From Gavia stellata (lineage: Eukaryota > Chordata > Aves > Gaviiformes > Gaviidae), in assembly GCF_030936135.1 (NCBI RefSeq), contig NC_082613.1, positions 806,001 through 870,000 on the forward strand: a stretch of 64,000 nucleotides of DNA. Reading direction: 5' to 3'. Made by a program: the position numbers and the translations under genes. Below are positions 23,701 through 57,983 of this stretch, in pieces (within the stretch, counting starts at the first letter, position 1; every line of letters begins with the position of its first letter). Under the pieces are notes generated by a model that was given only the letters and a program-made list of their open reading frames with translations, ran no database searches and had not been told where the DNA came from.

Positions 23701-26700
23701 CAAGCAGAAGTCATCTCCAACTGGAACAGTCTGTAAGGGGAAGCTGCAGAGCTGTGTTCAGAGCTGGTGCTGTGTGTGCTGCAGGCCAAGGGAGTTGGCT
23801 GAAGGCAGCAGTGTTGGGCCAGGTCAAAGCAGGGCAGGATGCAACATGGATGATTCTTCCGGAGCGATCCTAGTATGACCTGCACTTTACCTCTTGGCAG
23901 ATCTATAATGCGGGGCTGTGACAACATGTGTAGCTATTGCATCGTGCCCTTCACCCGTGGCCGTGAAAGGAGCCGCCCCATCGCGTCCATCCTGCAGGAA
24001 GTGAGGATGCTCTCGGATCAGGTGAGGCAGACCTTCCTTCCTACCTGCCCCAAACCGGGGGGTGGAAGGACGGTTCTCAGTGGAAGTGTTTTCAGTGATA
24101 GCTTTGACCAATGACACCGCCTTTATTTGTGGAGGTGAGGTTACCATAGGGTTCCACCAGTTGCTTTTTGATTCCCCTTGTAATACTCTGGGACAGACAG
24201 GGAAGGGAGGGCTTCCCTTGGAGACTCCTCCTTGAAGTAAGAGTAAAACCGTGTCTGCCCTTGCAGCTTAGCCGTCCTGGCAGGGTTATATTTTTTCCTC
24301 TCTGTTTATTTTTGTAGGGAGTGAAAGAAGTGACCCTTTTGGGTCAGAACGTCAACAGCTTTCGAGACATGTCTGAGGTGCACTTTCAATCAGCTGCTGC
24401 CCCAGTCCTCAGTCGTGGCTTTAGCACAGTCTACAAAGCTAAACCAGGAGGCTTGCGCTTTGCACATCTTCTAGACCAGGTTTCCAGAATTGATCCAGAA
24501 ATGAGGATCCGTTTCACCTCTCCACACCCCAAGGATTTTCCTGATGAGGCAAGTGTAAAATAAACACCTGGACCTCTGCTTGCAGGCAGCTCTCAACTGC
24601 TATCTGTGGGCTGTGCTTCCTTCCTGAAGGGAGCGTAGAATCACAGAATGGGAACAGCAGCTGCTGGGAGAGGGAATGTTTGTGCTAAAGCTGGCAGGTT
24701 TGCAGTTTGCTGGCTTATCCCCAGGGAAGACTCTTCGCCTTGGCATCCTGGTAGACTTGAGCTGTCTATGATGTTGTCTCCTGATTGTCCATCACAGGTC
24801 CTGCAGCTTATCCAGGAGCGACACAACATCTGCAAACAGCTTCACCTCCCAGCCCAGAGTGGAAGCACACGAGTCCTGGAGGCCATGCGACGAGGGTGAG
24901 TGAGCGCCATGGGGAGTCCTGTGCCCTACCTCTCTGATTCAGGGTGCTGGTTTCTCCTCACCGATGTTGCGGTTTTCTGATTAGCAAATCCATGTGTTGT
25001 TCATTGCAGATACACAAGAGAAGCCTATTTAGAGCTTGTACACCATGTGCGTGAGTGCATTCCAGGTAGGGGCTCCCTTTAGCTCCATCTGAGCTCAGCA
25101 CAGCTGTATCTTACTGTTATTTCTTGAGTGAAGTGTTAGTCTCTTCCTTGAGGGAAGTGTAAAGCTGCGTCTCTGTTACAGGAGTGAGCTTAAGCAGCGA
25201 TTTCATTGCCGGCTTCTGTGGAGAGACGGAAGAAGATCACCAGCAGACCGTGTCCTTGCTGCGGGAAGTCCGCTACAATGTAGGATTCCTGTTTGCCTAC
25301 AGCATGAGACAGGTGAGTGTAGGACCTGATGGAGAAGACTCTTATCTCTGGGTATCTCACCTAATTCCTGAATGCTGTTTCTCACAATAAGACCCTAAAA
25401 AAAGAAGCTATTGAAAATAATGCCTAAAGGCTTGGTATATTGGTAGATTTTTTGCTTGCATGCAGCACTTGTAGGGTATGTGGTTCTGCAAGGGCCATCT
25501 TTGTACCTGAAAGGCTTCCAGCTCCCTCATGTGAGCATCAGGGTTGATTACTGACTGGGTGACCTGGTTCTGCAGATGCTCCAGAGTCATCGCAGTGAAG
25601 CAGCCATGTCTGCGGAGACCTGGCTGCAGGTACAGTTTTCTTTGCTGATGAGAAATTGTGCTGATGTAGCTGGGCTGGAGCGCAGCTACAGGGACTCTGT
25701 CAATCGAGTCTGGAGAGAAGTGGTGAATTTTCAGAAGGTGTTTCCATGAGAAGAGTGGATAGCTGACAAGTCTCCATTAGAATGCTCTCCAAAGTGTAAG
25801 ATGCTGATGGGGAAGAGGACAGGAGGTTGGGAAACATAAGGAAGCAAAGGAGTATGGATCACCTTTCAGCACATGGAACTACAAGTAGTAGAACCCATTG
25901 CCTGTTCCTGTGGACAGACAGGCAACAGACACATCTTGCATAGGAGATGCAGAGCTGCTCCACACAGCCACCGATCCTCAGCGCCCTACATCAAACCTTC
26001 TACCAAAAAGGTGGTGCAGAAAGAATGTGAGGAACTCATAAAGATGTTGCTGGTGCTGAAAACGTTCCTTGAGACTGGAAATACAAACTGTAATGTGTGG
26101 AAAGCTGTTGCTTGAAGAGCAGCCAAGCTGGCTGGGGTCAGACAAGGTTCTGATCTCAGACTGTCTGTTTATCAAGGAGCCACACTTGCTTTGTCTGTTT
26201 ACAGAAAACCCGGGCATATCACCGGCTGCAAGACGATGTGCCTGCAGACATAAAAAAGAGGCGGCTGGAGGAGCTCATTACTGTCTTTCGAGAGGAGGCT
26301 GCAAGGGCAAATGAGGCAATGGTGGGCCAGTCTCAGCTAGTGCTGGTGGAGGGGGTGAGTGTGCCTGGAACAGGGTTGTCCTTCTCCCCTCTTGCTGGCC
26401 AAGAGGCTCTTAGGCTGTACACAGCAATTGTCACCTCTGCCTTCCCTTCTCACTTTCCCCACACAATCCTAGGACTCCAAGACCATGTCTGCACACTTAA
26501 GCAGACAGCCTGATTTTTCCAGAGTGCTGAGCTGGGCACAGGGGGATGGGATGGGTTAGAGACATGTCTCTGGCCAAGCACTGAATTAGTGCAGGCTTTG
26601 AAACGTTGGCTTTGGCATGTGGGTGTCAACATAGCAGCTCTGGCTATAGGACTTTGTTACATGGCGTGCGTAACAGTGTGGAATGTGGATTTTAATACTG

Positions 26701-36200: not shown

Positions 36201-39200
36201 ACCACGGGTGGAACCAGCGGGGTGAGAGGAGCCCCCGACCCCTCCGTGACGCCCCTGGGCACTGGCTGCGGCAATCCTGCACAAAACCGTGTTGTGTCCT
36301 TGCAGACGGGGCTCGCAGGGGTCTGAGCTGTCCCAGAGTCACCCACCCTCACACACCACGGCCAGGCGGTGCCAGCGGCAGGGACGTCCCCTGTGGCACC
36401 ATTTTACATTAGTATTTGTGCACCAAACCAGTGCAAAATTCTGTCTCTTCCCTTCTATCAATTCCACTCGCCTTCTGTGGCTGCTCCGCAAGGTGCCCGT
36501 CCCCGGCGTAGGCTGGCGAGGCAGGTGCTGCTGCCGGCTCCGCAGGGCTCATGGTAGCCGGTGGCCCATTGCTCTGCGGGAGCGGAGGTGGGAACCTCCC
36601 CCATGGCACCATGCCACCTGGAAGGATTTGCTTTTTGGCATTTTGGTTCTAGGATTACTGAGGAAACCTTTAGACCTGTCTTTGCAATTATTCACAGCCA
36701 GTGAGCCTGAGCTGGGACTTGGCACTTTCTTTCATCCTGCTCCTCCTGTTTCTTTAGGAATTGGAAACCGAATGTGCCCAGCGAGGCGTTAGGTATTAGA
36801 CAGCTTGGGCCAAGGCAAGGCGATCCGACCCTGTCCTTCCCCTCGCAGCTCTGCCACTGCCATCGAAGGACACACGGCCTTCTGCTCTTCACCTTCGTGC
36901 TCTGAGCACACGCAGCTCATTGGCATGAGGCTCAATTTCCCGGAGCCCCCAGCGCATCGGCGTTCATTGCGGCTGGCGGAGAGGCAGGAGGGATGTGCCA
37001 GCTGCAGCCCAGCAGTGCCTAATGACCATGTCTCGACAGCATCGTTACCTCTGTGTTTAATTGGCAGGGTGGGGGTGGCATCCTGCTCCCCACCAAGGAC
37101 GTGCTGCTCGGGGCATCGCTCGCTCCTGCCTCAGGCTGCCACGGACAGGTAAAGGAGCGAGGAGCAGCAGGAGAGGCTCGGCTGGAGTCCCTGGGCATTG
37201 GGGGCACCTCGGTCACCCCATCGACTTCTGAAAAGGGCAGCAGGAAACTCCAAGGTGTTTAGAGAAACATTTAGACTCCTGAACGCTCAGCCATGGCGTG
37301 CAGGAGCTGCAGGATAGGCTACAGGCAAATGGTCTGTCCCTAATGAAAATTTTCATGAAAAAAAAAGAAAACTGAAAGCTTCTGCCCACAAATCAAATAA
37401 TTCTATGGGGAACTTGAGCTGAAATACTTGATTTTTGGATCAGCTGCAAGGGACCAGCCGTCCCCACCATCTCATAACAACTCCTCCAGTTGAACCTTTC
37501 CTCCCCAGAGCCACTGCTGCTTGGCAGAGCCGTGGTTTCTGCGCAGAGCCGATTTAATTTCAAAAAACACTTTCTGTCAAAACTGGTTCAGGTGTGAAGT
37601 TTCAGAGCAGTGTTAGTGCCGGCTGTGGGGTAGGGGCTGTGCTCCAGATCGCATGGGATCAGATCGGTGCATGGGATCAGATCGGGACGAGGAGACAGCA
37701 CAGGGTCCAGGTGGGGAGGGCGATGGTGGGGGACGAGCCACAGCCCAGGAACGGCGGTGTGGGCCGGGGTCTGCGCTGGAAATGCTCACCCTGAGCTGGC
37801 ACCACAGCTCCCGGCTGTGCATGCTGCTCTTTCTGGCTACCAGCCGCTGGCAACTGCCATTTCCCACTTCCCAACATCTTCAGCCGTTCTGCTTCTCTTC
37901 ACCTTTTTTTTAAAACAATTCATTAGGAAAAGGTGACACCCGCAGCCGGGGCTGGGGCAGGTGGCGGCTCAGCAGCACGTGCACGGTGGAAGGCTGCCGA
38001 CAGCAGACACGTTACCGGCTGGCATGGCAAACTGCAAAGTGGAGTGTAAATGTCAGGTGAGAAGCAGGTCCCATCCTCTGGCCGAGGCACCGAGACGTGA
38101 GCAGGAGCCCTGGCCCGGGGAGCGGGGGCACTGGGAAAGATGCTGTCTGCAAACCCACGGCTCATGGGACCAGGTCTCCGCTGCGCCCGCGGGACGGGGC
38201 TCTGGGCAGGAGCAGAGGGACCCGTGATGGGCCGAGGTAGAGGAGGGTGTTGGTGCATCCCAGCAGGGATGCCCAGCAGAGCCAACACGGGTGCTGGGAA
38301 GCGGCTGGTGGCACACAGTGCCTTGCCGGTGGCTCTGCAGGCTGCAGAGCTCGGGGATCCGGCACCGGCCCCAGCAGCTCTCACCGTGCAGCCGTTCTGC
38401 GCAGGGGCTGTGGCACAGCTGACCCCAGGACGCATTTTGATGTGGGGAGCAGCCAGCAAGCCACTGCAGCCGGGAGTGAGCTCCTCCTGCACCCGAGAGC
38501 TCGCCGGCCATCGCCACCCGCTCACCCCCGGGGTCCCGGGGGTCCCGGCCCCAGCCCGGGGGCTGCTGCCCCGGCAGGGCACCAGGGACGTGTTTCTTCA
38601 TGTCAAACAGCTCCCAGCTCGCTGGCAACAAGCAGGGAGCAGGAACAGAGAATAAAAGAACCAGCAGCTCAGGGACAAGGGCAGAATAAATCTGCATAAA
38701 TACAAATGAGGAGAATGTTTATTTCTCACATTGACCACATTTCTGTAGCTACTTTAAATGGCGAGAGAGGCATGGGTCCATCAGAGCTGGGCAGGGCTCA
38801 GACTCGGCTCCGGGGCTGCAGCTCGTCGTGGTTCCCCACCTTTCCAGCAGACTTACCTATTAAATATTCTTTGCATGCGAGTTACTCCTGTAGCTGATAG
38901 GAGAGATAAATAACAAAACCCTTGCAAATGCAAAAATCCTTTGGCAGTTTGGAAAGAAACCAAATCACGTGCAGAATGCAGATGAAGAAAAATCCTTTTT
39001 ATTGTAAGGAGTAACAGAAGGGATGTGAATCCGCCTCACCCACAATGCAACATATCCAAATCCACTTGGAGATTACAAGACAGGATAGCATTTACTCTGA
39101 TCAGTTCAAAGCATGACTGTTAGGGAACAAATTGGCTAAGTACACATCTGGATTAGACTGTAGGCCTTTTTTGCCTTCTTTTTAACAGTATGAAATCACT

Positions 39201-41018
39201 GGAAACAGCAAAATTTCTTTTTGAAATGGTAAACTAATCAAGAAGCAGAAGGAGAGCAAAGACAAAGCAGTTACATTTCATCAGCATTTGTCCCTTTTCT
39301 CTCTTCCCTTCCTGGGAATTTGGTGCAGTTGGTGCAAATTCACAGATTTCCTGTGGGGCGGCTGCATGGGGACCAAATCGCAGCCGCCAGCCGGGCTGTC
39401 TTGGTCCAGCACCGGGAAAGTCTCCTCTGTGCCAAGCAGTTGCATGGCCGAAACCACAGCCCCGGTCCAGGCGGAACTCGGGTGTGTGTGAGGAAGGACA
39501 GGAGGCCCAGGGCCGCATCTTTGTCAGTGATTGCCGTAACGAGTGGCTTATGGCCGTGACAGCTGGGAGGGCATGTGGGCATGACCCGGGGCTCCTGCCT
39601 CTGGATCCACTGCTAGCAGCGCCATTGGCACCACTAGCCATTGGCATGGCCAGCCATCAGCATGGCTAACCATCAGCATGGCTAACCATCGGCACTGCTA
39701 ACCATCAGCACAGCTAACCATCAGCATGGCTAACCATTGGCACGGCTAACCATTGGCACAGCTAGGCATTGGCACAGATAACCATTGGCACAGATAACTA
39801 TCGGCAAGGCTAACCATCCCCATGGTTAACCATTGACACGGCTAACCGTTGGCATTGCTAACCATTGGCATGTCTAACCATTGACATGGCTAACCATTGG
39901 CACGTCTAACCATCGGCACAGCTAACCATTGGCACAGCTAACCCTGGGCTGGACAGAGGCACCGAAGTCTGATAAGGCTGAAATGTCACGCAGAAGAAAT
40001 AGTGTATTTTCTTGGTTGGGTTTCTCCATTTTCACATCTATTCTCCATGTATTGAGTCATCTTCCTCCCTTCCCTCCTCCTCCTCGGGGCAGAGCGGTGG
40101 GAATCGCCCCTGGGGGCACCTGGGGGGATGCTGGAGCTGAGGTTTTGGGCAGCGCAGGAGCTTGGAGTGGCAGCCCCGTAACTCCCCTGTCACCTCCCGC
40201 TACCAGGCGGCAGGGTCAGCCCTGGTGGGCTCATCTCACCCAGCCCAGGCACTGCCACCGGCACCGGCACGTCGGGCAGCAGAGCCTCTGAGCCAGGTCC
40301 CCAGGCAGCAAATCGTCCTTACCCCACAGCGCTGCTGGCCCCGCGGCTACGGGATGCTCCCGGGATTGACGCCTGTGGCTGGGGGAGAGGGACCCAGGTC
40401 AGTGCTCTCTGCCCCCCCCCCGCCCGGCCCCCTGCACCCCGGCAGCCCCCACCCGCGGGGCCGGGCTCCGTGGTGCCCCATGCGCCGGTGGCCTGAGAGC
40501 CCCTGGCTTTATGGGCAGAGATGATTTAGTGCCCTGAGGAATACGCCTCTGGGGAAGCTGGGATGGCTTCCAACTCTTCCTTCCCTCCTCTATATATTAA
40601 CTTCACATGCATATGAAGCTGAAAGCTCTTCCAATCACCTCTGCAAATATTAATTAATCTTCACAGCATCCTAAGGACCATTATTCACTCCTATTAAGTA
40701 AATATTATTAAATCCTTTTATGAGAGGTGAAGTGACTTTTCCAGGGCTGTGCAGGGCATAAGTAGGACTGCACAGACTCTGTCTCGTGACCATACTCCCG
40801 GAGCCACTGAGTGCGGCGAAGCAGCTGCTGCTCAGGGGTGAACCTGCCTGTGCCTGAGCCGGGGGATGTCTCTGAGGACCAGGGACCTCGATCGCCCCAC
40901 AGCGCAGCTGCGCCGTGTGGGGTGGAAGCATTTTGTGGGACCACCCCGAGATGCATCAGCACCCTGTGGCTTTGGCTGCACCCCATGGCCATGGGGACCC
41001 GCTCCCCGCTCTTGGCCA
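27300..41018. other. Intergenic region between CDK5RAP1 and the BPI-fold cluster
   Basis: About 13.7 kb without a recognisable exon on either strand. I searched both strands for BPI-fold signatures (LCPxVD, GVPLPxxLN, VTGQFLELDL) and found none. In mammals BPIFB1 and the BPIFA genes lie between BPIFB4 and CDK5RAP1, so this is where their counterparts would be expected. The stretch contains a 16-bp minisatellite at 39.6-39.9 kb, a T run near 35291-35305 and CTC runs near 32510-32535. The GC content drops in 28-29 kb and 34.9-35.5 kb. I see nothing else that I can support. Confidence 0.6.
39621..39943. repeat. 16-bp minisatellite, about 20 copies
   Basis: The unit is close to GCTAACCATTGGCACA with frequent substitutions (CATCAGCATG, CATCGGCACT). 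The period of 16 bases holds for about 320 bases. About half the units carry ATTGG, which is CCAAT on the other strand. The unit length shifts frame each copy, so it is non-coding. Confidence 0.92.
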
Positions 41019-44000
41019 CTACCCCGCGCCAGGGCTGTGTCCCTGCTGTGCGTCCCTGCTGCTGTGGCTGCCCCTCTCTGGGTCACAGACACCAGTGGGG
41101 ATCCCCATCGCGGCGTCGAGGCCAGACTTACTCTGAAGGAGCCAGTCGATGAAGGCGCTTGGGAACGGGGAATTCTGCAAAAACCCAGGAGGCATTAAAG
41201 CGCATGACTGCGGAGGCTGCGGCAGGCAGGAGGGCAGGCAGCGCAGGGGGGCCAGGGACGGGACACGGCTGTACCTGCAAATCCAGCTCCACGAACTGCC
41301 CGGATGTCACCGGCAAATTGGAGAGGGCAGAGTGGATTTTCCCCAGGAGCCCAAAGGAGATGACACCTGCGGAGAGGGAGAGGCCGTCAGGGCTGGGCAG
41401 AGCCGGCTGCCCGTTCAGGAGCCTGCCGGAGTGCTCTGCCTGCCTGGAGCCGCGCTGGCAAGCGGAGCATCGGGCAGAGGCTGGGAGAGGAAGGTCCCCA
41501 GCACCACAGGAGGAAAAAGTCTCGTCTCTCCTGCGGGTCTCAAACCTCCCGGGCTTCAAAGGCTCCCATGAAAGCCGCTGTCCTGGAGCTACCTGGTGCA
41601 TGTCTCATCACACGGGAAATGTTTTGGGTAAATGGGGACAACGCTGCCTGCAATGAAGCAGCAATTGCCTCTGTGCGGGACTCGAAGTGAACAGAGCCGG
41701 GGAGGGAAACCCCCCTGCTCTGCGGGGCTGCAAACCAGGGGGTCCCAGCAGAGCTGCCTCGCTTGCAGCAGCTCGGGTCTGGCCCCAGTTAGAAAAACAA
41801 CCGTGAGAACAGCGGGATCGTGATGCTTTCGTGATGTCGGGCAGCGGGGGGGTGAGCCAGGACTCTGCCACCCACAGCAGCTTTGCTGGTGGAGTGGAGC
41901 AGCTCCTGCTTCACACAGAGCAACTCCTCCCACGGCTCCGGCTCTCCGGAGGACGGCCACAGCCTGTGGAGATGGCTAGACACGCAAAACTCAAGTGTGG
42001 CTCTAAAAATTAATGTAGAAAAGAAAATTTAATGACTTACGGTTGAGGAATTGTAGCTTAATATTGATGATGCTGACCCAAATATTCACTAATGGGCAGA
42101 GCTGTAACGGTAACAAGTGGCACAACGTTGGTGAGAATACTGTGGGTGTAGCGACGTGTTTCCCTAACATCATTTGAGTTTCACAGGCTTTAAATCAAGG
42201 CGGAACAATCAGCTCCCAGAGCACAGTTTCCTCCGTGGAAAAAGAGCAGTATAAATTGTTCAGCTCTCCTCTCAAAGTGGCACAGATTCTATTCAACAGA
42301 ATGAAAAGATTTTCTAACAAGCACCTTTTTTCTAAGTGAGGCTGTCGCTTCTGCTTACCGCACCGTCTCGGTACCAGAAGGCGCTTCAGAAAGCAATTGG
42401 TCACAAATTATCCTGCAACATTGACTGATGGAATCTGAATTACTTCTAACAAATAAATCCTGACTGTAAGAAAGATCAAGGAAGCCTGCGGAATTCACTT
42501 ACGGGATGTGGGCATGTGCCTGTTGCATGCACACATGTGTCTGTATGTATGTGTGAATCTGCTGGACAGTTATGGCAACAGCACTAATTTCGGTTAAAGT
42601 GCAGCTTCTCACAGCAAAGGACTTTCGGGCACTCACCAGTGCAGGTACGAGGGACTGAAGAGACGAGTTCAGCAAACCGCTCACCAGATTGGTGAGGAAG
42701 CTGGAGAGGGAAAAAGACAGACAAAAATTACCAGGGAGATTGTCGAAACCCGGTGCTCCGCAGCAAGACAAATCTGAAATACTCTGCTGGTCTGCAATGC
42801 CGTGAACACCGAAGAGGAGCACGCCTTGTCTTCTCTTCTCTCGGGTCTTAAAAGATGCTGCTAGCCCACAGCTCCCCCAGGCTTTAGCAGGCATTACAGA
42901 TGCTCAGGACTTTGTTATCTGCTTATCAAAATCTGATTGTTAAGGTGTAAATCTGTGCCCGGATTTGAGACTGAAATCTTGCCCCACTGCAAACATGCAA
43001 AGAGCTGAGCCACGGCTACTCCTGCCCGTTTTTTTAGCTGTTTCCCCGTGCACATACCAATATCCCATCCCCTTGCAGGTTTCTCAAAAAAAATGCCTTT
43101 TCTATGAGAAAATCCCAGGGCTCCGCATGGCTGGATAATGGAGCTGCCATTCACTCTGCGTGCTACCCCTGAGATTTTTGCTGAATTAACCCTCTCTGCC
43201 AAGTGCTGGGTGGTCTCAAGTCTGGAAACTGGATCCCGGCTGGGCACCTTGGGGGCGAGGGAGGGAGAAACCTGCCTCCAGCGCGAAATGCAGCCCTTCG
43301 CCAGGGGCCACGGTCGAGCCCCAGGTCAGCCCGGGTGGGTCAGGCTCAGCTCCCGCGTGTGACGAGTCTGTCCTTGCAAATCACCCGGGGGCCTCTACGA
43401 GCAGCTGCTCGGTGGGTGACAGGGGCCCGGGGGGGTGAGCGCTCCCACACTCACCCCTTCCGCAGGTTGACGCTGAAGCCACCAAGCAGGTTGCTGCAAT
43501 CCTTAATCACTAACTTGAGGTCACCGGGGGTGTCTTGGGTCAGTGTCACGTGTGACGTGATGTTCGTTTCGACCGAGGATCCGCTCAGAAAGTGAAAAAT
43601 CCTGAAAAATAAGGAAGTGGCTTGGAGGATTATGGAGGAGACCGAAGCAGCCCAGAAGAGCGGTATCTGTGCCTGAATTGCAAGCTTGGGCTCGGCTGGG
43701 ACAATGTTTTAGTCTCAGGACTTCATTCAGGCTCCTGGACCTGTTAGCAGATCATTGAAGTCCCAGTGTGCAAACAGGCGTGGAGGGGTTTCCAGTACAG
43801 TTCTGACTTCGGGGGAGGAAGGACAAGTCAACATGAAGGAGCATGGAGTCTTCTTGGCACGTTGCTTCCAACACCATGTCCACAGGAGGATCTCTGCCTC
43901 TGCCCGCCGCCGCAGACTGAGACTGTGTCTTTGGAGTGAGGACAGCTGGAAATGTCCCCAGGGAGAGGCACCAGCACAGCACAGAGCTTTCCTCACCAGC

Positions 44001-45737
44001 CCCTTGCTCAGTGTTTTGGGATGTTTCTCCAGCACCCGGGAACAAGCTGTCCTCCCCAGCACCCTCAGACCCCCATGGCCCCGCTCTGCTGTCTTGCCCA
44101 CCAGCCCTGCTCACCCTGGTAAGCGCAGCACCAGCTTCGAGTACAGGTTCAGCACAAGCTCGCCCCCGCGACAGGACCTTCCATGACACTCGGACATTCT
44201 CAAGGTTCAGCACCTTCAACCTGGGGGTCAACACAAAAGCAAACCCACCTTGAGATGGCAGAATCAGCAGGGGCAGACCCTACAGTCCCATCTCATCCTG
44301 TTCATCATTTGACCTGTTAACTATGTGGATATTCCCAGTTAAATGTGTAGGCGGGGAAGGGCCAGCGCCTGCTTCAAGAAGAACCAACTTCAAAGCAGGG
44401 TCAGGTTGCTCAGGGCTGTGTCCCACTAAGTGTCAGCCATCTCCAAGGGTGGAGATTCTCCCACCTCTTTGGGGTGCCCATCACAGTGTCACATCACTCC
44501 CATGGGGAAGACTTTTCCCATCTCCGGTTGGATTTTCCCCTATCGCAGCTCCTCACATGAGTTGCGAGCCCAGGACTGGTGGTTTGCATAACAGGGAGGA
44601 TCTGGTCCCCTGGAGCACCCCTTTAGGGGAACCTCTCCTCTGAACGTTATTTGTTACCCTGCAGCAAGCACCACTGCTGTGCTTCTGCTCTGACTTACCA
44701 GGCGAAGCGTGTTGGCTTGCGAGGGACTCCACCACCCAGCAGTCCTCCTTCACCCAGCAGTCCTCCTTCACCCAGAAGACCTCCTTCACCCAGAAGGCCA
44801 TTGAGACCAAGTAGACTCCCGTTGCCTAAGAGACCTCCTTTTCCAAGCAGCCCTGTGCCAAGCAGACCTTTCTCTCCAAGAAGGCTTTTATTGCCAAGGA
44901 GGCCATTGCTGAGGAGACCATTGCCGAGGAGACTATTGCCAAGGCTTTCCCCACCAAGGATGCCTGTGCCAAGGCCTTCCCCACCAAGGACGCCTGTGCC
45001 GAGCAGACCACTGCTGCCAGGTTGTCCTCCTGCAACAGACAGACCTCCATTACTGTTCTGGTTTTCATTGGCAAGAAGCCCTCCTCTCCCAAGCGCACCC
45101 ATGCCAAGTAGACCTTCCTCACCTAGGAGGCCTGTGCCAAGGACCCCAGATCTGCTGGATTCATTTCGTGCCTCAAGGGGACCTCCACTTTCTCCTCCAC
45201 TTGGACTTCCTCTGCCAAGGAGGCCGGTACCAAGTAACCCACCTTCACCAAGAAGTCCTGTGCCAAGCAATCCACCTTTTTTGCTGATGAGACCTTCGCT
45301 GCCAAGAAGACCAGTACCAAGCAGACCTGCACCAAGGAAGTCCCACTTACTAATCAGACTTCCACTGTTGGAAAGATTTTATTGACAAGAAAGGTTGGTT
45401 CAGCTACGTTAGGTTGACCTGCTCGTGAGGTCTCACAGGGGACCCCTGAGCATCCTTGCGCAAAGTTGGGTTCCCCATGGAGCTGAGCCTGCCAGGAGGC
45501 AGGTCTCTGATGAGCAGAGGGACGCTCCATGAACCCGACATGGCACAGGACACACCGTGACTGAGGTGGGCATGTGTCCGCCTATGCCACATGCTCCCCT
45601 GGGAAACATGGAAAACCTCTGAGCTCACCGTCTTTCGGTTGTGCTGGGCTCAGCCCAAGGACACTGCCCAAGTTGAGGAGGCCCTGGGAGGGGGGCAGGA
45701 GGCCTCCAAGGAGGATAAGACACCAGAAAGGCAACAT
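41019..45737 (-). CDS. Single-domain PLUNC/BPI-fold protein with a long GLLG repeat (BPIFA-like)
   Basis: Coding exons, 5' to 3': 45737-45629, 45326-44699, 44220-44115, 43601-43455, 42700-42637, 42101-42041, 41366-41275, 41174-41019. Exon 1 encodes a signal peptide (MLPFWCLILLGGLL), similar to mammalian BPIFA2. Exon 2 is a Gly/Leu repeat of about 200 residues built on GLLGxG. The rest is one BPI barrel: ETNITSHVTLTQD, the cysteine pair in IKDCSNLLGG and LCPLVN, then SNLPVTSGQFVELDLQ. Later exons of two-domain relatives are absent. The last exon opens NSPFPSAFIDWLLQ and reads on to a stop at 41021-41019, although a good alternative donor (CAGA/gtaagt) lies at 41132. The 44220-44115 exon is 106 bases against 105 in BPIFB4; the extra base is in five C (plus strand) at 44163-44167 and breaks the frame in this assembly. 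About 453 residues if that base is an error. Likely secreted, lipid-binding or surface-active. Confidence 0.72.
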
Positions 45738-47449
45738 CTCTGGTCCCAGCACCTGTGGAGAGACCCACATCAGCCCAAGCACCAGCCCTACCGTGCGGGA
45801 TTCAGCAGCCTGGGCACTGGTCCGGCTCTCTGTCCTTCATGTGCCACCTCAGGGCAGTGGGGCAGGTCCCCCCTGGACATGCAGCCCCCAGACCCAAGGG
45901 ACCAGTCCAGACCCACAGCACCCCTTTCCCACCCAGAAAGGTCAAACTGCTTTGGGTTATCAGGGAGCAACTGGAGCACGGTGATGTGCTCCTCCAGAGT
46001 CATTGATGTCTCCATGCTCTGCTGGGCTACTCGCTGCAGAGCCGGGTGCCTGACATCACAGTGAAGCTTGGAGGGAGAAAATGCCATTTTAAAGAGAGCA
46101 AGAGGGATAGAGATGAGGCAGGAGGACCTTGTATCAAGCAAGACGGATGGCTTCCAACCACTCTGAAACGGCCCTGAAAGAAGAACACTCAAAGGGGCAC
46201 AGATGGATAAAAAATGGTGTGTGTCAAAGTCGTGTCCTTCTCCCCGGCATGAAGAATACCTTGCATTATTAAAGCTCAAAGCACAGCCAAAATCAGACTC
46301 ACTTCTCCGTGGGCAGGTTGTTTGTTTTTCTCATCTTGCTCCATTCAGGCTATGAAAAGAGTCTACTTCCCCTGTATTTGACCTGCCTCTAGTCAAAAGA
46401 GAGCACCTTCAAGGACCTCATGTTCCCGCATGAGCTGGAATCCTGGGGTTGCAACCAACGCTGTGGAGTGTTTGTTTATGCACAGAAATGCTGTTTGCAA
46501 AGAAATGAAAAGAGGCACCCGCTGAAGCGCTGCCGTAGGTCCCAGTTTAAGGGAGCACCCGCCTGCACAGCCCCCATCCCGGGCCAGACACCCTGGCTTG
46601 TCTCCTCTGAGAAAAACAATGTACAGGCTGCAGATTTGAGGTTCAGCACTGAGAAATAACTTTATTTAGGTCAGACTGAACAACTTCTTTATCTGTTCCA
46701 GATACTTTAAAAAAAATCCCTGTATGACAGTTCTTGGCACAATTAAATTAGACTTTAATTCACTAGACTGTCTTTTACATTTTCCCTTTGATCAGCATGT
46801 AATGATGCACAGCTCCTGTAGCTGTGATTATTGAACAGGAGAGAAAGATAGAGGCTTGAGCAGCTTCCATTGAAAATCGTGTCAAATAAAATCAGTGGGA
46901 TTTGTTGGAGGGTCTCTGCAAAACGTGCGTAGCATTGTAAAAGGTTGCCAAAATGGTTTTCAGGTCTTTTAGAAGAGCTCTCAGAGACAATACGTGACAG
47001 AGTAGACAACTGTCTCTGCAGTTACTAATGATATCTATCGGGTTGGTACCTTCTTGGTCACACGCATTTAAGTGAGCTGAACATCTTGTACATGCAAAAT
47101 GCATGTATGGCTTTGCAGATAAACACCTATTTTGTACCAGCTGAGATGAGATCCGATAAGCTGAAAATTGTTCTGAATTCTGGTCACCAAGATCATGAAA
47201 AAAACCCTAGTCATTTCTGCTAGCTTAGTCATTGCAACAAACTTAACAACAACAAAAATAAATGTGGAATTTGACAAGCAAGAGCTCTACTAGCTTTAAA
47301 AAGTAGTTTTCATAAATGATTACATGCTGCTACAGAAATCAAAGGCAAACATCATTAAAATTCTTGCTTTTAAAGCTGAGTTACACTTTGCTGTAGGTCG
47401 TCTAATGGGAACAAGAGCTCTGTGGCCACGGTACCTTAATGCCACTTAC

Positions 47450-47490
47450 CTGGAGCCCTTTGATGTTGCGGCGCTGCTGCCCACAGCCTC
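47450..47490 (-). other. Probable non-coding first exon of the BPIFA-like gene
   Basis: Downstream of the minus-strand TATA box, a donor CCAG/gtaagt ends an exon at 47450. The exon carries no start codon. The signal-peptide exon begins at 45752 behind the acceptor CTCCACAG. BPIFB4 has the same arrangement of TATA box, short non-coding exon and signal exon. Confidence 0.5.
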
Positions 47491-47515
47491 TCAGCGGCGG
47501 CTGGCAGGAGCAGCT

Positions 47516-47523
47516 CTTATATA
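47516..47523 (-). promoter_or_regulatory. TATA box of the BPIFA-like gene
   Basis: TATATAAG on the minus strand, identical to the octamer in front of BPIFB4. It is about 65 bases upstream of a good splice donor, the right spacing for a short non-coding first exon. It suggests regulated, tissue-specific transcription. Confidence 0.6.
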
Positions 47524-49361: not shown

Positions 49362-52300
49362 TCACGCCGACAGCACAATGAGATCCTGGTGAAGCACACG
49401 GGTTACCTTCCCTCTGAACATCCTCCGCGCAAGCGACAGGCACTGCCTTTGCTCTGGAGCAGAGCTGAGGTGCCGGTGGGGAAACCTCAGGGCATGGCCT
49501 GAGCACTTACTTCGATGATGTCGATGTCCGCATTGGTGAAGTCGGTGTTCAGCAGCCTGGGGAGGGGAACCCCCACGCCCAGCACGCCTGTGGGTCACAA
49601 GCCAGCCCAGCTCAGTGCCATGGGAAGGGGGGTCACTGGCGAGCTTCTGCCTGGGGCTTGGTCCCCAGCCCCATCCTCCCTGTGTGCAAACCCCTCCCTC
49701 CCAGGTGCAAGGCTTTCCGGCAAGGCTTTGTGTTGGGGGACTTAGTGCATCAGCAAAACACACTGTCGTTTGCTCCTGCCAGCAAAGCAGCAGGTGGTGA
49801 GCAGCCCCACGGAGGGGGCTGCGGGATCCCCGGTTTGTGACATGCGGGTTCGCCTCCTGGAAAAACGCTGCCACCTGAAACGAGCCCCCCCTCCAGTGCA
49901 GGTCGGTCCCACTGGCTCCTGTTCTAAACGGCGAGGTAAACTACACCTGCATAAATTCCATGTCTAGGGTACGGTCTAGCACAAACAACTACGTGAACGA
50001 GGCATGAGAGCTTCCTTACTGTTCATAGCAGGCAGGAAGGCAACATCGAAAATCTGGCCAACAAGCATCTCCAGGAGCGAGACCTGCAAGAGGGAGAGGG
50101 GTTGCTTCGTGCCACCGCTGGTGCCGGTCCCGTGGCCAGCCCGGCCTCACGCTGTCCTCGGGCACGTGGGGATGCTCCGCTCACACCAGCTAAACCCAGC
50201 CTGAACCCTTGGTGCACACCCATCTAATACAAACTCCCAGTTTCACAGAAATTGGACTTCAAGCACTCTATGGTCAATTTTTAGCCCCAAAATAATGGCA
50301 TTCCACAGGCCCCTTCCCACTGGCATTAAAGCTGCCTGCAGTAACCACCGCAGGAAACCAGATGTTCTCTATCTGCAGGTATCCTGCGACGGGAGAGCCC
50401 CGGATTCCTCCTGACTTTTGCCGTCGTCCCCTTGAGGCATGGGGATGAGCCTCCCCAGGCGCATCCCAAGGAGATGTCATGGGCATATGCGGGATGTCCT
50501 GCGGTTCACTGCGGACCCAAAACCTCTCCCTCTCAGTGAGGATTTTTTCTGAAAGTTGCTCATGGATCGTCCATGAAAAGAAATCCATCTCCAGAGGTGA
50601 AAGAGAGGTGCCATTAAGAATACAACACAACCGTTATGGCATAAATGGCCCTGATTTCTCCTGAGCCAATATCTATCAGCACTATGCTTTCTGCAACCCA
50701 TTTCGCGTGTTGCTGAGGCTGCTCGTGTTCTTACATCAAAACCACCGACGGACGAAGACACCAAGGAGAGGTCAGCCCTGCAGGAGGAAGCAGAGGTGAG
50801 TAAAATCCAAGCAATTCCTCTGATGACCCAGTCCTGTCGATGCCCTCATCATCACACAGCCCAGGAGGTCCCACGTCCGTGGCCACCCCGGCCACCCCCC
50901 AGACGAAGACCAGTGTCCTACTTCTCCAGGCTGACGCTGATCTTCAGTTTGTTGTCCTTGACCGAAAACTGGGCCAACAAGGAGGCATCCTGCGGTCAAA
51001 CAGAGAGGGCAGGGCAGGGGTGGCTCCTCCAGCCCCTGCCCAAGCCCAAGCCTGCAGCCCAGCCGTGTCACATTGGGCACAGGTCCCATCTACCAGCACC
51101 CCCACACCCGCCGTGCGGGGAGGGGGAAACTGCAGGAGGAATTTCTGCATGGGTTGTTCCTTCATACATACAATATTCAGCAAGCAGAGAGAACTCCAGA
51201 CATCGTCTGGGTGGATCACCACCACCTCTGCTGTAGCCGTGAGCTGGATCACACCCTTATTTTTCTTTAAGGTCACCACAGGCGCTTCAGGGACTGCAAT
51301 TTTCAGCAGTAATTCACGTGGCTCAGGGTACGCCTCGAAAATCTGTCAACATCCAAAGAGGGAAAGTTTCTGCTGGCAGGAGCACAAACAGTGCCGACAC
51401 CGGACCAGGCAGAAGAAAGGAGTAGTGAGGAGCCAGAGAGCGGCTGCCTGCTCCGGCAGCATTTGCACAGCGCTGCTCTCAGGGGCCGGATCTGATCCTG
51501 AATTGCACCAGTCCAACAGGTCTGTATCTCAGCTGCTGAAGTGAAGTCAAGCCTGCTGTGCGCTCAGCCCTGCGGACACCCTGCGTCCCGCTGAAGGCAC
51601 CTCATCCCGGCTGGAGGAGCACAGCCAGCCCCGCATCCAGGCAGACGGGGCAGCTGCAAGGCTCGTCTCTGACCCAAGAGAGCTGCAGAGGACGGGGGTG
51701 ACAAAGCGGGCTCTGGCCCGCCGTGGTTTCCAGCTTTGGACCTAAGTCAGAGCTCATTCAAGTCCATGGGACATCTGAGACGATGCCTCTGAGGAGGAAG
51801 AGAGAGAGAGACCTCCCCTGCCTCGAACGCTGCTCCTCTGACCTTGCGGTGCAAGGGGGAACCAGGACTCACCGCAGGAACCAGGGCTCCGAGGGTCGAT
51901 GTCGTTAGCGGCGGGAGCTCGGGGAACTGTGACAGAGAAGAGAGAAATGCTGCACGTGTGTGTGGTGGTTTTCAGCAGAACCTGCTTTCACCAGCAACGT
52001 GCCTGAGGCTTTTACCACACGGTCTCTCGCTCGCATTTTTCCTCCAAGATAGCAGAGACGCTGATAAACGGTACAGAGGTGCTAAGGCATTGCACGGTGG
52101 GACCTGTTTGCACGGCTGACAACCCTGAGTCCTTCCAAACCCAGAGCTAGGCAGTGCCCCCGCTCACCATGCCGCTGGAGACGTCCAGGTCCAGGGCACC
52201 CTCCTTCTGCAGGACAGACAGCACGGAGCTGAGAAAGTTCACGGAGAGGCCCAGCTGGGAGGAGCTGGTGTCCCCCATCGGTGGCAGGGGCGGCATGGGG

Positions 52301-55300
52301 ACCCGTGGTGCTGCGGGGACAGCTTCTGGCTTTCCCAGCGGATAGTCCACCAGGCCTCCTGCCACTTGTCCAACAACAGTCTGGAGTTACAGGGGAAGGA
52401 AGCACAGGCCAAAATGTTTGCAATATTTGCCTTTACGGTTAACTTCATGTCCCTTCAGTGTGAAATGGCTGCACGCACGACCACGCCAAGTCAGGCCCTG
52501 TGACACTTCCTTCTCCAGAAGTTCGTGAAATGCAAACCCCGCTGCGCTCTCCCGTGACGGCGGCAGCAGCAAGAGCACGGCACCGAGCCGGGACCTCCCC
52601 AAGCTTTTCACAGCAACCTCGGGGCCCACTGCTCAGGTGTAGGTGGCCCCAGGGACAGCCCACAGAGACCTTCTCAAACGCAAGTGAAATAGCACAGCCC
52701 TTGTATGTAGATGGAAGGAGAGGATGCAGGACTTACATTCAAGTCTACCTCGAGGAACTGGCCGGTTACTAGGGGAAGGCTGGACACGGTGTACTGGATA
52801 CTGCCCAGCAAACCCAGGGGCACCAGTGCTGGGGGGGAGAGGAAGGGACTCAGCAATTCCCTGCTGGGCTGGGGTGCAAGTACCCCCTCCCCTGCCCGGC
52901 AGCTCTTCTTCTTCCAGAAGAGCCCTGGCTTGCAGGTGGACTCAGGGCAGCCGCTTGGCCCCAGCTCCGAGCACTCTGTGCTGTGTGGTAATGCCGCAGG
53001 AGACGTCATTTCCCTAACGAGCAGTGCGTGCCACTGCTGCAAACAGAGGGGACAGCGCACAGCCCCCTCGATGCCACCTCTATGCACCCAGGGGTCCTTC
53101 TGTCCGTGATTAGAGACAGGGAAAGGGGAGATATGGGGAGGGGAGTGCGTCCCGCAGCGTGCTGGGGCACTGCTCCCTGGCTGCTGCCCGGGGGTGACGG
53201 GGTCCGGGCAGGGAGCTGCCGGGGTCCCCGCTCCCGGCACGGGGCAGACCTGGGGTCTGCAGGGTGAAGCGGGGGGGTTTGCTCTTCCCACCTGGGGCGC
53301 AGCAGCGGAGGGGAAAGCATCACAGTCCTCGCGCGGCCAGAGCAGAGGTGACGCGAGGGGGAAGGCAGGGCGAGGCGTGGGACCCATCAGGTACTTACAG
53401 TTCACAAGACCCAGGTTGTCATTGACGAGTCCCAGGGCGATGTCAACCACCGGGCAGAGCTGCAAGAGTTGGGGAGGGACGGTGAGTAACGCGTGTTCGG
53501 AGTCAGACAAGGACACGAAGCCCAGCTCGGCTCTGCCACGCTTTCCCTGGGGACGGGAGCACCGGGTGCATGGGATGGCAGTCCCCGCTGGTGACTCCAC
53601 GGTGCTGCGGAGGCTGCACCAGCTCTGGATCTGGCCCTGGGCACCTTGCCCTTCGTCAGAGAGCAAGGTTAGGACTGGATCCCAGGAGCCCACATGGGAT
53701 GGCTGGAGAGACCCTGTGGCTTTCAGGAGGGAGGAGAGCTTCAATTAGCCCATAACACAGTCCAGAGCATCGGTAGAAACTCCCAGGCACTTGGGCAGAG
53801 CTGCACCGGGCTTGCTGACCTTGCATTTGGAAGGAGGGAGCAGCTTCTCCCAAGCAGATAGAGACGTGGCATGTGTCCCCTGCTAATCCCAAACCACTGG
53901 GCAGGTGGATGGACGCAGCAGCCCTGAGACAGTGGCCGTGCTCCCACTCTGGGACAGGAGTGATGCCACGGGGAGCTGCACTGCAGCTTTTCGGACTCAT
54001 TGCTCCTTTCCGGGGTGGAGGGTTTTTCCAACTTACTAGATTAGGAAGAAGTCTGTTTAGGACGCTTGCCAATAAATTATCAACAATTGGGAGCAGGCTG
54101 TGGAAAAATAAAGGAGCACCATGAAAAAAACCTGCTGCAGAGTAAATGGGTCTTGTTAAATAATTCCCTGTGAATAGCGCGGAGTGCAGACCTCCCAGAG
54201 CAAGGCAATTGCAGCAGCAAAATGCATCATGTATGCTTGGATTTTGCATGAGATAAGTGTAATTTGCATCCCAAAACAGCCAGTGGGAAATTTATTGCTG
54301 CCTTCTATCTACTAGTGTATAATCTCCTTAAATGAGCAGAAACAACCTCATCCAAAGTGGTTTCTATGATTTACATACCACGTGCTTATGTCTTAGAAGA
54401 CCCTGTGCAATGTCAGTGAAAATGACCCATGAATGCTGCACATGGGACAGAAACGTCCCTCCAGGACCGCTGCGGGGTCGTGCAGCCCTCTGGGACAACA
54501 TGCCTATTTGCTGTGGCTGTGCGAGGGGTACACAGGGACCACCACCACCTGCAGCCTTTTGCTCAGCCCCATGACATGGCTGGTGGGCGACTGTCACCTG
54601 CAGGGATGGCGGCTGCCGGTGTCGCAGTTGCCTGTGGGACTCAGACGTGCAATGGGAAACGCCCTCGTGCATTTGCCGTTCTGCGGGCATGGGCTGGAGG
54701 CCAGCAAAGCCTGATGGCGAGGTGGCTCCTGCCAGCAGAGGAGGACACCTCTGTCACTCACCCTCTCAGGAGTCTGACTTTAATGCCACCAAGGAGGGTA
54801 TCGCATCTTTCTGTCACCAGTTTGGGGCAGCCCGTGCCGTCCATGGTTAGCCTGACCCTTGATGTGATGTTCACTTCCACTGCGATGTCAAGCAAACCCA
54901 GGAGGCTGTGCGAGGGGAAGGGAGCGACCTTCAGCGGAGCAGCCTCTTCCCGGCGAACAGGAGCAGTTCCCCCCCCCGAGGAGACACCCCTCATGGTGGT
55001 GCTTCCGCCAGGTCCGGGGGCACGGGTGGCACTGCCACCAGCCCCACCTACCTCTTGCCATTGAGGGCCACCCGGGTGTAGAGGTTGAGGTGGATGCCGA
55101 TGCCAGGCAGGAGCCGCAGGGACACCTTGGGGAGCGTCAGCTCCACGATCCTCAGCCTGCAGGGACAGCGAGGGGAACGCCACGAGTGATGGCTCTGAGC
55201 CCAGCCCCCCACCACCCGGGCTCTGCCTCTCACACAAAGCCACTGGTCAAGGGGTGGGCGAGCCAGAGGCCATTTAGAGCAGAAATGGCAAAAGACACCA

Positions 55301-57079
55301 CGTTTTCTCAGTTATTTTCCTGGTTTAGTTTTTCTCCAGTTTTATCAGAAGCTTTGTTCTAGTTGCCTTATTATTGCTTGTGCTCGTGCTTCTGCTTGGT
55401 GCTGGGCTTCTAATAAGTGTTAAAATGGGACGGTTGCAAACAAGTGAGCATTGGTTTGGCAGCGGTGGCACCAGCTCCGCAGGGCCAACATATAGTTTGG
55501 TGCACCCTCTACGGGCAAGTGCCTTTCAGCTGCTGTGTCCTTTAAGTTCCCTTGTGTAGCTCAAGAGGCTCTTTTGCAGCCAGCAATGCAAACCTGGAGG
55601 GACTTCCAGGCAGCGTTTATCTCAAAGCATCAGCTCTAAAACAGATCTGAGCATCTACTGAAGCGTCACCATTGCCCCCCCGAAAGAGCTCTGAGATTGT
55701 CCCCCTGCAAGGAGCCCGGACGGTGCTGTCCTTACCCGGTGAGCCCCTGGACCGTGCTGAGCAAGCCACCTTCCCCGAGGACGCCGAGCAGGCCGCCGCC
55801 TCCCAGCAGCCCTCCGTTGCCCAGAAGCCCTCCTCTGCCAAGAAGGCCACCGGGGCCACCGAGGATCCCTGCCGTGCCGAGGAGACCTCCGTCACCGAGC
55901 AGACCTCCTTGTCCCAGTGCTCCTCCAGCAACCCCTGCGGGGATGCCATCCCTGGGGACATCACCACCAGCTGCCGGCCAGCCTCTGGGAGGGTTTCTGG
56001 GCCCCCCCCCATAAGCACCTCCACCACCCCCTCCACCCAGCAAGCCACCGCCAGCATCGCCCCCTCCACCAAGCAGACCACCAGTCAGCCCCCCCAGCAG
56101 CCCTCCGCCACCACCGCCCAGCAAAACACCAGTAATGCCACCAAGCAGACCACCACCACCACCACCGAGAGCTCCTCCGAGGCCACCCAACAGGTCTCCA
56201 CTTCCATCTGTGCCGGGACGTCCGCTCCCGAGCGGCACCTCTCCGAGGGCGCCTTGGAGGGTGTTGCCTTGCCTGAGCGAGCCTGTAAGAGCTGGAAACA
56301 TCACCCGCCGTCAGCCTGCGAGGCAGAGCTGCCTCCTCGGCCACCGCTGCAGCCTTCGAGCGGGGACGGGCAGGCAGCTGCCAGCCCCCTGCCCGCACCA
56401 TTACTCATTGTGTTCCTTAAGCATGGATTGTCAAGGGGTTTGTGCTCTCCATTACCATTGCTGCCCATCCCAGTCCCTAACTCTCCACTGTCAGTTTTTC
56501 CCGTATATGATGCAACAGAAAAAGGGCTTTGGGATCCAGGACAGGAGGCACCGTGTTAAGACCTGCGTAAAGCAGCTCAGGGGACTTTGTCTGCAGCTGT
56601 ACCAGTAAGACAGCAAATCACGTGGCACAGGCGCAGGGGCTGGGCACTGATAAGCCCTGAATGTGAGATAAATGAGATGCCGTGTGGCTTGCACCTCCTG
56701 AGCGGTGCAGGCTCCCGGGAGGAGCAATCCCCCACACGAGCAATATCCTTTTAGGAGCCTGGCCAGTTGAATTCTTAATTATAAAAACATGACTCTGGGT
56801 TTAGTTTGGAGGGGGCAGTTTGCACGCAAGCCTCATGCTCTTCCCTTTCCATGTGCAATTCCCCTCCCTTCCCTGGCTGATCAGGCTGTGCTGCTACCAC
56901 AGCATCAACCCCCAAGGACCACCGTTGGTTCCTCTTTCCCAGACTCCCGCTACGAGGAGGCAGAGCGACTCACCATCGCTTAAAACGTCTTTACTGAGCC
57001 TGAGGACGGCATCTTTTGGCTCGCTCAGTGACGGGGTCAGCAGGGCATACAAGAGGGCGATGCCCAGAGCCGGTGGCAT
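49362..57079 (-). CDS. BPIFB4: BPIFB4, two-domain BPI-fold (long PLUNC) protein
   Basis: Coding exons, 5' to 3': 57079-56974, 56282-55736, 55156-55052, about 54905-54763, 54097-54037, 53459-53399, 52828-52737, 52380-52168, 51926-51873, 51342-51172, 50989-50922, 50777-50735, 50083-50020, 49587-49511, 49385-49362. They join in phase for about 609 residues, close to human BPIFB4. Order: signal peptide ([14 protein letters not shown]); [20 protein letters not shown]; a Gly/Leu repeat ending [15 protein letters not shown]; first barrel ([34 protein letters not shown], cysteines in ERCDTLLGG and LCPVVD); linker [15 protein letters not shown]; second barrel ([35 protein letters not shown]) and end DLIVLSA. 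These match human BPIFB4 almost throughout. It is expected to be secreted and to bind lipids. The Gly repeat (about residues 60-215) is longer and more glycine-rich than in human. The start codon was chosen for its signal peptide; the acceptor at 57123 implies a separate 5' exon. Confidence 0.93.
55738..56230 (-). repeat. BPIFB4: Gly/Leu-coding repeat within BPIFB4 exon 2
   Basis: On the minus strand the exon encodes runs such as [27 protein letters not shown] and [13 protein letters not shown]. Units are five to seven codons (GGLLGx). The repeat is coding, and long open frames on the opposite strand are its shadow. Confidence 0.85.
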
Positions 57080-57983
57080 GGTGTCTTCTGCTCGGCTGGG
57101 AGCACTGTGGGTGCTGGCAGGACCTGGGGAAGGACAATAGGAAAAGAGTGGGAATAGGCTGGGAGACCCCCGGGAGACAAAGGGGAGTTGCATATTTTGA
57201 GCTGGGTGAAAATTTTTCAGTGAATAGAAAACACGAGCTTTAGGAGGACCAAAACTCTTCATGAGTTAGAGCCACATGCAGCAAATAGATCTGGACACAC
57301 ACAAAGGGAGGGAGAGGGAGGGCGTCCGTACGCACATCTGCAGGGAATTTTTCAAGCCAGCTTCTACAACCCCAGCACCTGTTTGCTTATTCCTGTTTAT
57401 GGGCACCCCGGGCAACCTGCTCCTTTCCATCCCTGGTCACTGTGACACAGTTTTAAAGTTACAGTATGAAATCATTACTCATAACCTATAGACTACACTG
57501 AGCTCCCCTCACTAATAAGCACCCTGTGAGTGGGCGTGCAAATTAATGCTGCAATTATACAAGCAACTCACATTTGGAATAAACCCTTTCTTTTTAAAAT
57601 GGCAAGTTTTAATCTTATAGCAATAAAAATAATAGTAACAACCTTAAGAGGATATTGCAACACAAAAAATCCCTAACGTCAGTGTCAGAGAAGGGGCTTC
57701 ATTTTACTACAGCAACCTCCTTTTCTGATTTTTTTCAGGCTGGTCACTAAATATAAACTAGAATTATTTACTTGCATTTCTACCATTACTGGTATTTCTC
57801 CCATGTTTTTTTCTTGCTCACCAGTGTATATTGTAAGGCCCGCAGGTGAGATGGTGGCTCTGTCCTCCCAAGCTTACAACACCCTGTACCACTATTTTGA
57901 CCGTATTTACCTGGTCTTATCCCAAATGTCAAAGCTGGGCTTTGGTCTTCAGTGCTCAGCTCTTGGTCAAGCGGAGACCTTAC

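What the first reader, a model, noticed from the sequence alone, without database searches (positions are those of the whole stretch)
41019..47523. A bird-like genome carries a single-domain, BPIFA-like PLUNC gene in the mammalian BPIFA position
Seen: signal exon resembling BPIFA2, a Gly/Leu repeat exon, exactly one BPI barrel with its cysteine pair, and no second-barrel exons down to CDK5RAP1. Known: short PLUNCs (BPIFA) are described mainly from mammals and sit between BPIFB4 and CDK5RAP1, as here. Inference: either an unrecognised sauropsid BPIFA orthologue or a BPIFB4 tandem copy that lost its second half. Exon phases, the repeat exon and the linker exon after LCPLVN favour the second, or a common origin of both.
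Basis: partly seen in the sequence, partly recalled or inferred. Interest (0 to 1): 0.8.

Follow-up and report, generated by a model that had tools for sequence, protein, structure and literature searches.

The report
Bird single-barrel PLUNC gene (chicken P10)
This looks like a bird's short, one-barrel relative of the airway and egg defence proteins, the counterpart of a chicken gene that was set aside in 2011 as a probable pseudogene; most of it still looks like a working gene, but the copy in this genome carries one extra base that breaks its reading frame.

Summary
On the minus strand, between BPIFB4 and CDK5RAP1, lies a gene with a TATA box, signal exon, Gly/Leu repeat exon, one BPI barrel with its cysteine pair, a linker exon and no detectable second-barrel exons. 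The interpretation needs three changes. (1) It is not unrecognised: position, exon sizes (61, 92, 43, about 124 bp) and a primer match point to the orthologue of chicken "P10" (ENSGALG00000006693), which Chiang et al. 2011 called a likely expressed pseudogene while finding no single-domain PLUNC in chicken. (2) It is not a BPIFA gene: a place inside human BPIFA is rejected (AU p 0.044, 0.008, 0.002), it lacks 6-7 residues that BPIFA1 has, and it ends elsewhere. It fits best near BPIFB3/BPIFB4 (weak support); a place as sister to BPIFA+BPIFB1 is not excluded. The repeat exon varies mainly at third codon positions, with shifts always multiples of three, so it evolved as protein. Best reading: an old single-domain avian gene of BPIFB3/4 type, coding until recently or still.

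The parts
47516..47523 (-). TATA box (TATATAAG) of the putative promoter
   Evidence: sequence
47450..47490 (-). putative non-coding exon 1; 5' end estimated about 30 bp after the TATA box, donor CCAG|GTAAGT
   Evidence: sequence; inferred, no transcript
45629..45752 (-). exon 2: start codon at 45737, signal peptide MLPFWCLILLGGLLPPSQG (by eye), ends in phase 1
44699..45326 (-). exon 3: 628 bp Gly/Leu repeat exon, phase 1 to 2
44115..44220 (-). exon 4: 106 bp (105 bp in the five LPLUNC-type genes of chicken); frame changes in a run of five G; chicken 'Protein 12' RT-F primer site at 44172-44191
43455..43601 (-). exon 5: 147 bp, barrel, first cysteine (DCSN)
42637..42700 (-). exon 6: 64 bp, barrel
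42041..42101 (-). exon 7: 61 bp, second cysteine (LCPLV)
   Evidence: chicken P10 61 bp, a size shared by most LPLUNCs
41275..41366 (-). exon 8: 92 bp linker exon VISFGLLGKIHSALSNLPVTSGQFVELDLQ
   Evidence: chicken P10 92 bp, a size shared by the family
41132..41174 (-). exon 9: 43 bp, NSPFPSAFIDWLLQ; donor chosen with the chicken size known
   Evidence: chicken P10 43 bp
38993..39116 (-). exon 10: about 124 bp terminal exon, three codons (IML) and stop, 3' UTR with AATAAA; located from the chicken RT-R primer site (38994-39013, 4 of 20 mismatches), 3' end set by the chicken size
   Evidence: chicken P10 124 bp
49500..57100 (-). neighbour: BPIFB4, two-barrel, with its own Gly/Leu exon (approximate span)
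21253..24866 (+). neighbour: CDK5RAP1 (span of motif hits only, motifs recalled; the gene is longer)

Best explanation
The locus is the orthologue of the chicken gene P10 (ENSGALG00000006693), a single-domain BPI-fold gene of BPIFB3/BPIFB4 type in the avian PLUNC cluster. Shown: gene anatomy, position, exon sizes shared with chicken, no detectable second barrel, coding-type variation in the repeat exon, one frameshift in this assembly. Inferred: it arose by tandem duplication of a two-barrel BPIFB gene, lost its second half before chicken and this bird split, and gained short 3' exons; the product is a secreted one-barrel lipid-binding protein carrying a hydrophobic Gly/Leu-rich N-terminal region. 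The likely way it works is that the barrel holds acyl chains of lipid or LPS while the repeat region makes it surface-active or self-associating at a mucosal or oviduct surface. In this individual the frame is broken once in exon 4, so the copy is either intact with an assembly error or a young pseudogene; both fit this statement.
For: Order in this genome: OCX36, TENP (reversed), BPIFB6, BPIFB3, BPIFB4, this gene, CDK5RAP1, BPI, the names given by place, exon sizes and matches to recalled human proteins. The chicken coordinates give the same order for the BPI-like genes, with P10 between LPLUNC4 and BPI, and the text puts CDK5RAP1 next to BPI (the figure was not seen). Exons 7-9 are 61, 92 and 43 bp in both; 61 and 92 are family sizes, 43 at this place is peculiar to P10; exon 10 fits 124 bp. 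The chicken RT-F primer for 'Protein 12', by elimination that of P10, matches exon 4 with 2 of 20 mismatches, expected 0.00 in the window. Chicken EST and RT-PCR show transcription. Repeat exon: 174 of 174 close self-matches lie at shifts that are multiples of 3; mismatch by codon position 0.144, 0.106, 0.385; BPIFB4's repeat exon behaves alike, two non-coding arrays in the window do not. Neutral simulation at 0.08 changes per site gives no stop and at most one frameshift in 0.7% (indel ratio 0.05) or 0 of 2000 runs (ratio 0.1).
Against: Chiang et al. judged P10 a likely expressed pseudogene, because neither the EST nor the prediction encodes a whole domain, and could not amplify the more PLUNC-like transcript. 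The chicken EST's other exons (189 and 329 bp) do not match mine. The RT-R primer match is weak (3 matches in the window at up to 3 mismatches over 16 bases, 0.73 expected) and guided the choice of exon 10. Exon 4 is out of frame here, while 52 of 60 exons sought in five neighbouring genes were recovered at exactly the chicken size, open and in phase, so the assembly is not generally poor. The divergence behind the simulation rests on 40 primer bases (6 differ); at d 0.03-0.05 the outcome is not always rare (0.6% to 21%). The coding pattern of the repeat exon may date from before any loss of function. No function was tested.
Confidence: 0.8

Rival explanations
1. Young pseudogene (overlaps with the best explanation): the gene worked until recently in this lineage and the extra base in exon 4 is real, so the copy makes no whole barrel.
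For: One-base excess in exon 4 with clean frames on both sides; only one copy found with a 251 bp query, so no second haplotype to compare; 52 of 60 neighbouring exons recovered in phase; chicken P10 also called a pseudogene.
Against: The excess lies in a G run, a likely place for an assembly error; the other coding exons of the model are open and their splice borders canonical.
Confidence: 0.45
2. Sauropsid counterpart of the whole mammalian BPIFA+BPIFB1 group, that is, the same ancestral gene that in mammals expanded between BPIFB4 and CDK5RAP1.
For: Same position (mammalian order recalled); AU test does not reject it (p 0.55, 0.159, 0.215); 7 of the 8 solved-structure matches are BPIFA1 chains, though no BPIFB4 chain is among the matches.
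Against: Rooted trees put it with BPIFB3/BPIFB4 (72/80, 72/78); 44.7% identity to bird BPIFB4 against 24.8% to human BPIFA1, which may only reflect the slow change of BPIFB4; BPIFB1 has two barrels, so the single-barrel state would still have arisen separately.
Confidence: 0.15
3. True orthologue of mammalian BPIFA (short PLUNC).
For: One barrel, BPIFA position, signal exon resembling BPIFA2 by eye (BPIFA2 recalled).
Against: AU rejects it inside BPIFA (p 0.044, 0.008, 0.002); lacks the 6-7 residues that BPIFA1 has in the exon 6 region; carries a full linker exon and continues 52 residues beyond the alignment with BPIFA1, against 18 in a 240-residue BPIFA1 chain.
Confidence: 0.04

Closest known systems
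Chicken P10 / 'Protein 12' (ENSGALG00000006693, EST BU136253), Chiang et al. 2011, PMC3253384
   Same: position, strand relative to BPIFB4, exons of 61, 92, 43 and about 124 bp, RT-F primer site
   Different: chicken EST has exons of 189 and 329 bp before these and does not encode a whole domain; here the barrel exons are present in LPLUNC sizes except for the extra base in exon 4
BPIFB4 / LPLUNC4
   Same: Gly/Leu repeat exon, exon phases, barrel 1 exons, linker exon; 44.7% identity over exons 4-8
   Different: BPIFB4 has the second barrel
BPIFA1 (SPLUNC1) and other mammalian BPIFA
   Same: one BPI barrel, signal peptide, position between BPIFB4 and CDK5RAP1 (mammalian order recalled)
   Different: extra residues in the exon 6 region, different end; P10 inside BPIFA rejected
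Ovocalyxin-36
   Same: avian PLUNC cluster member; 36.4% identity over barrel 1
   Different: two barrels, located at the other end of the cluster

Membership tests
BPI/LBP/PLUNC (LBP_BPI_CETP N-terminal domain) | Pfam PF01273 above its cut-off | tested here: met
   52 bits against 28.8, X at the frame break; 46.1 bits for exons 5-8 alone
BPI/LBP/PLUNC (LBP_BPI_CETP N-terminal domain) | conserved cysteine pair of barrel 1 | tested here: met
   Cys in exon 5 and exon 7, aligned with the family; bond itself not tested
BPIFA (short PLUNC) | single BPI domain | tested here: met
   no second-barrel exons found in window 30001-41274 nor by tblastn at E < 0.5 in 16923-41274
BPIFA (short PLUNC) | groups with BPIFA in a tree | tested here: not met
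BPIFA (short PLUNC) | extra residues in exon 6 region, shared in the alignment by BPIFA1-3 and BPIFB1 | tested here: not met
   exon 6 is 64 bp; gap in alignments
BPIFB4-type LPLUNC | exon phases and sizes of barrel 1, Gly/Leu exon | tested here: met
   exons 5-8 of 147, 64, 61, 92 bp within the range of chicken LPLUNCs; exon 4 one base over
BPIFB4-type LPLUNC | second BPI barrel | tested here: not met
Orthologue of chicken P10 | synteny, exons 61-92-43-124, primer site | tested here: met
   exon 10 guided by the chicken primer
Orthologue of chicken P10 | full-length sequence alignment with chicken P10 | not testable with these tools
Working gene | intact reading frame | tested here: not met
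   one extra base in exon 4 as assembled; assembly error not excluded

The most novel reading that the evidence does not exclude
P10 is the sauropsid sister of the whole mammalian BPIFA+BPIFB1 group, so the gene that gave rise to mammalian short PLUNCs already stood between BPIFB4 and CDK5RAP1 in the amniote ancestor, against the published view that this arm arose in mammals; birds made their own working single-barrel version with a Gly/Leu region.
Probability: 0.15. Interest if true: 0.65.

Novelty: new variant of a known kind. Interest (0 to 1): 0.42.

Why it matters
The survey of the chicken family that I found (Chiang et al. 2011) reports no evidence for single-domain proteins of this family in birds and files P10 as a likely expressed pseudogene. 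This window shows a second bird with what looks like the same 3' structure, a full set of barrel exons and a repeat exon that evolved under protein-level constraint. That makes a clear, cheap test possible: does a one-barrel PLUNC exist as protein in birds, and did single-barrel forms arise more than once?

Tried and rejected
Rejected: membership in BPIFA. Rejected: the gene being ovocalyxin-36; the gene at the OCX36 place lies some 50 kb away at the other end of the cluster and has second-barrel exons. By eye exon 9 looked like a piece of the ancestral exon 9; it was not among the four best matches of the exon 9 profile, so no such claim is made. The first acceptor tried for the repeat exon (AG at 45365) was out of phase with exon 2; the one before 45326 is in phase. 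Trees of 12-14 rows and about 160 columns cannot place P10 exactly; several alternatives are not rejected, and the groups were named after a first tree had been seen. Bird BPIFB3 and TENP were not put in any tree; human BPIFB2 and BPIFA3 were dropped in the second tree as long branches. Other copies: a 251 bp query round exon 4 found only itself in the 1.32 Gb genome. The Pfam search of the whole genome gave two exon hits, in BPI and BPIFB4, and missed this gene, so it is too insensitive for counts. Literature: nine searches showed, in what I saw of them (listings; 40 of 51 papers, 15 of 4,822), no report of a bird or reptile single-domain PLUNC; the library holds open-licence papers only. Papers: PMC3253384 abstract, results (section 9 part 1 of 2, section 13), discussion and figure legends with tables; PMC8144736 section 8 and passages; PMC9363672, PMC4666066 and PMC1839098 passages only; others only as listings.
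Full report
What is there. The window lies on an 18.1 Mb contig of a 1.32 Gb genome. On the minus strand a gene runs from a TATA box at 47523-47516 to an AATAAA near 39000. Exons 2-9 have AG and GT borders and exon 10 an AG acceptor; the phases are those expected for this family apart from one extra base in exon 4. The signal exon ends in phase 1; the 628 bp Gly/Leu exon runs from phase 1 to 2; the next exons are 106, 147, 64, 61, 92, 43 and about 124 bp. The predicted product, read across the break, is 419 residues: a signal peptide, about 210 residues of LLGxGLLG-like repeats, a BPI barrel with linker of 156 residues and a tail of 17. Pfam gives PF01273 at 52 bits with X at the break, 46.1 bits for exons 5-8 alone; cut-off 28.8. 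Seven of eight solved-structure matches are BPIFA1 chains, E 2e-5 to 0.006; the eighth, E 0.098, is unrelated.

The frame break. Exon 4 reads LKVLNLENVRVSWKVLSRG in one frame and GELVLNLYSKLVLRLPG in the next. The change falls in GGGGG. The five LPLUNC-type genes of chicken in Table 3 of Chiang et al. have 105 bp here, bird BPIFB4 also; this exon has 106. In five neighbouring genes 52 of 60 exons sought were recovered at exactly the chicken size, open and in phase (BPIFB4, BPIFB6, OCX36 and BPI 11 of 12 each, BPIFB3 8 of 12). I picked these by eye among the candidates listed, and the scan cannot see frameshifted exons; the other eight were not recovered and I did not show them broken or whole, except BPIFB4 exon 11, which is open. 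So the assembly looks good here, but a single error in a G run cannot be excluded. Only one copy of the region was found.

Identity. This genome has OCX36, TENP on the other strand, BPIFB6, BPIFB3, BPIFB4, this gene, CDK5RAP1 and BPI in that order; the names rest on place, exon sizes and matches to recalled human proteins and motifs. Chiang et al. give the same order of BPI-like genes for chicken chromosome 20, with 'Protein 10' between LPLUNC4 and BPI, and CDK5RAP1 next to BPI. Their P10 exons include 61, 92, 43 and 124 bp; 61 and 92 are common to the family, 43 and 124 at these places are peculiar to P10. I chose the exon 9 donor knowing the size 43, and found exon 10 from the primer site; the distance of that site from a good acceptor then fits 124 bp. 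Their primer pair 'Protein 12' is by elimination that of P10: RT-F matches exon 4 here with 2 of 20 mismatches (expected 0.00), RT-R falls at the end of my exon 10 with 4 of 20 mismatches, not significant over the whole window but in the right place and strand. They confirmed transcription from pooled cDNA and judged it a likely expressed pseudogene. They state that chicken has no SPLUNC genes.

Coding evidence in this bird alone. In exon 3, 174 of 174 close self-matches have shifts that are multiples of three, and mismatches between in-phase copies fall at codon positions 1, 2, 3 in fractions 0.144, 0.106, 0.385. The BPIFB4 repeat exon gives 36 of 36 and 0.113, 0.156, 0.488. Two non-coding arrays of the window give flat values and mixed shifts. 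Leaving out any one of ten 60-base blocks leaves position 3 the most variable. The compared stretches overlap, so these are not independent counts. Over exons 4-8 P10 and BPIFB4 differ at 79, 48 and 97 first, second and third positions of 154 codons, NG86 dN 0.60 and dS 1.82, an old duplication; this cannot tell which branch was constrained. Simulated neutral decay from an open frame gives on average 2.2 stops and 4.4 or 8.7 frameshifts at 0.08 changes per site; no stop with at most one frameshift came in 0.7% or in 0 of 2000 runs. At 0.03 it is 21% or 7%. I therefore infer constraint after the split from chicken, with the divergence poorly known (6 of 40 primer bases differ).

Relationship. 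P10 with BPIFA and BPIFB1 as one side is not rejected (0.55, 0.159, 0.215); nor is P10 with BPIFB4 (0.293, 0.228, 0.206) or with OCX36 (0.176, 0.217; already joined at 27/0 in the unrooted tree). The rooted trees place P10 with BPIFB4 and BPIFB3 at 72/80 and 72/78. Identity over exons 4-8: bird BPIFB4 44.7%, human BPIFB4 40.4%, OCX36 36.4%, human BPIFB3 34.9%, bird BPIFB6 32.2%, human BPIFA1 24.8%. P10 lacks the residues that BPIFA1 carries in the exon 6 region and keeps the whole linker exon. I infer an independent loss of the second barrel.

How it would work. Inferred from the family only: a secreted barrel that binds lipid, with a hydrophobic repeat region that would favour surfaces or self-association, at mucosa or oviduct; Chiang et al. 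found other chicken genes of the cluster expressed in the reproductive and digestive tracts, and left P10 out of that panel. I put about 0.4 on a working protein of this kind in at least some birds.

Verdict. A known but neglected avian locus, better resolved here; not an avian BPIFA. Its interest lies in reopening the statement that birds lack single-domain PLUNCs.

Noticed in passing
window 39622-39943: 20-copy array of a 16-bp unit (CCATTGGCACGGCTAA) inside the last intron of the gene model; non-coding by its flat mismatch pattern.
   Followed up: partly
window 55735-56310: Bird BPIFB4 carries its own long Gly/Leu exon, with the same third-position pattern as the P10 repeat exon.
   Followed up: partly
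contig C20 865778-870525 (window 59778 to beyond 64000): BPIFB3 of this bird: 8 of 12 exons sought were recovered at chicken size; exons 5, 8, 10 and 12 were not, so it may be divergent or eroded.
   Followed up: partly
window 3898-4447: GC-rich array with a 53 or 105 bp unit, no coding pattern.
   Followed up: partly
window 10102-18742: BPI on the plus strand beyond CDK5RAP1; 11 of 12 exons sought recovered at chicken size.
   Followed up: partly
PMC3253384 tables 1-3: The chicken gene is called Protein 10 or P10 in Tables 1 and 3, but its primers seem to be listed as 'Protein 12' in Table 2.
   Followed up: partly
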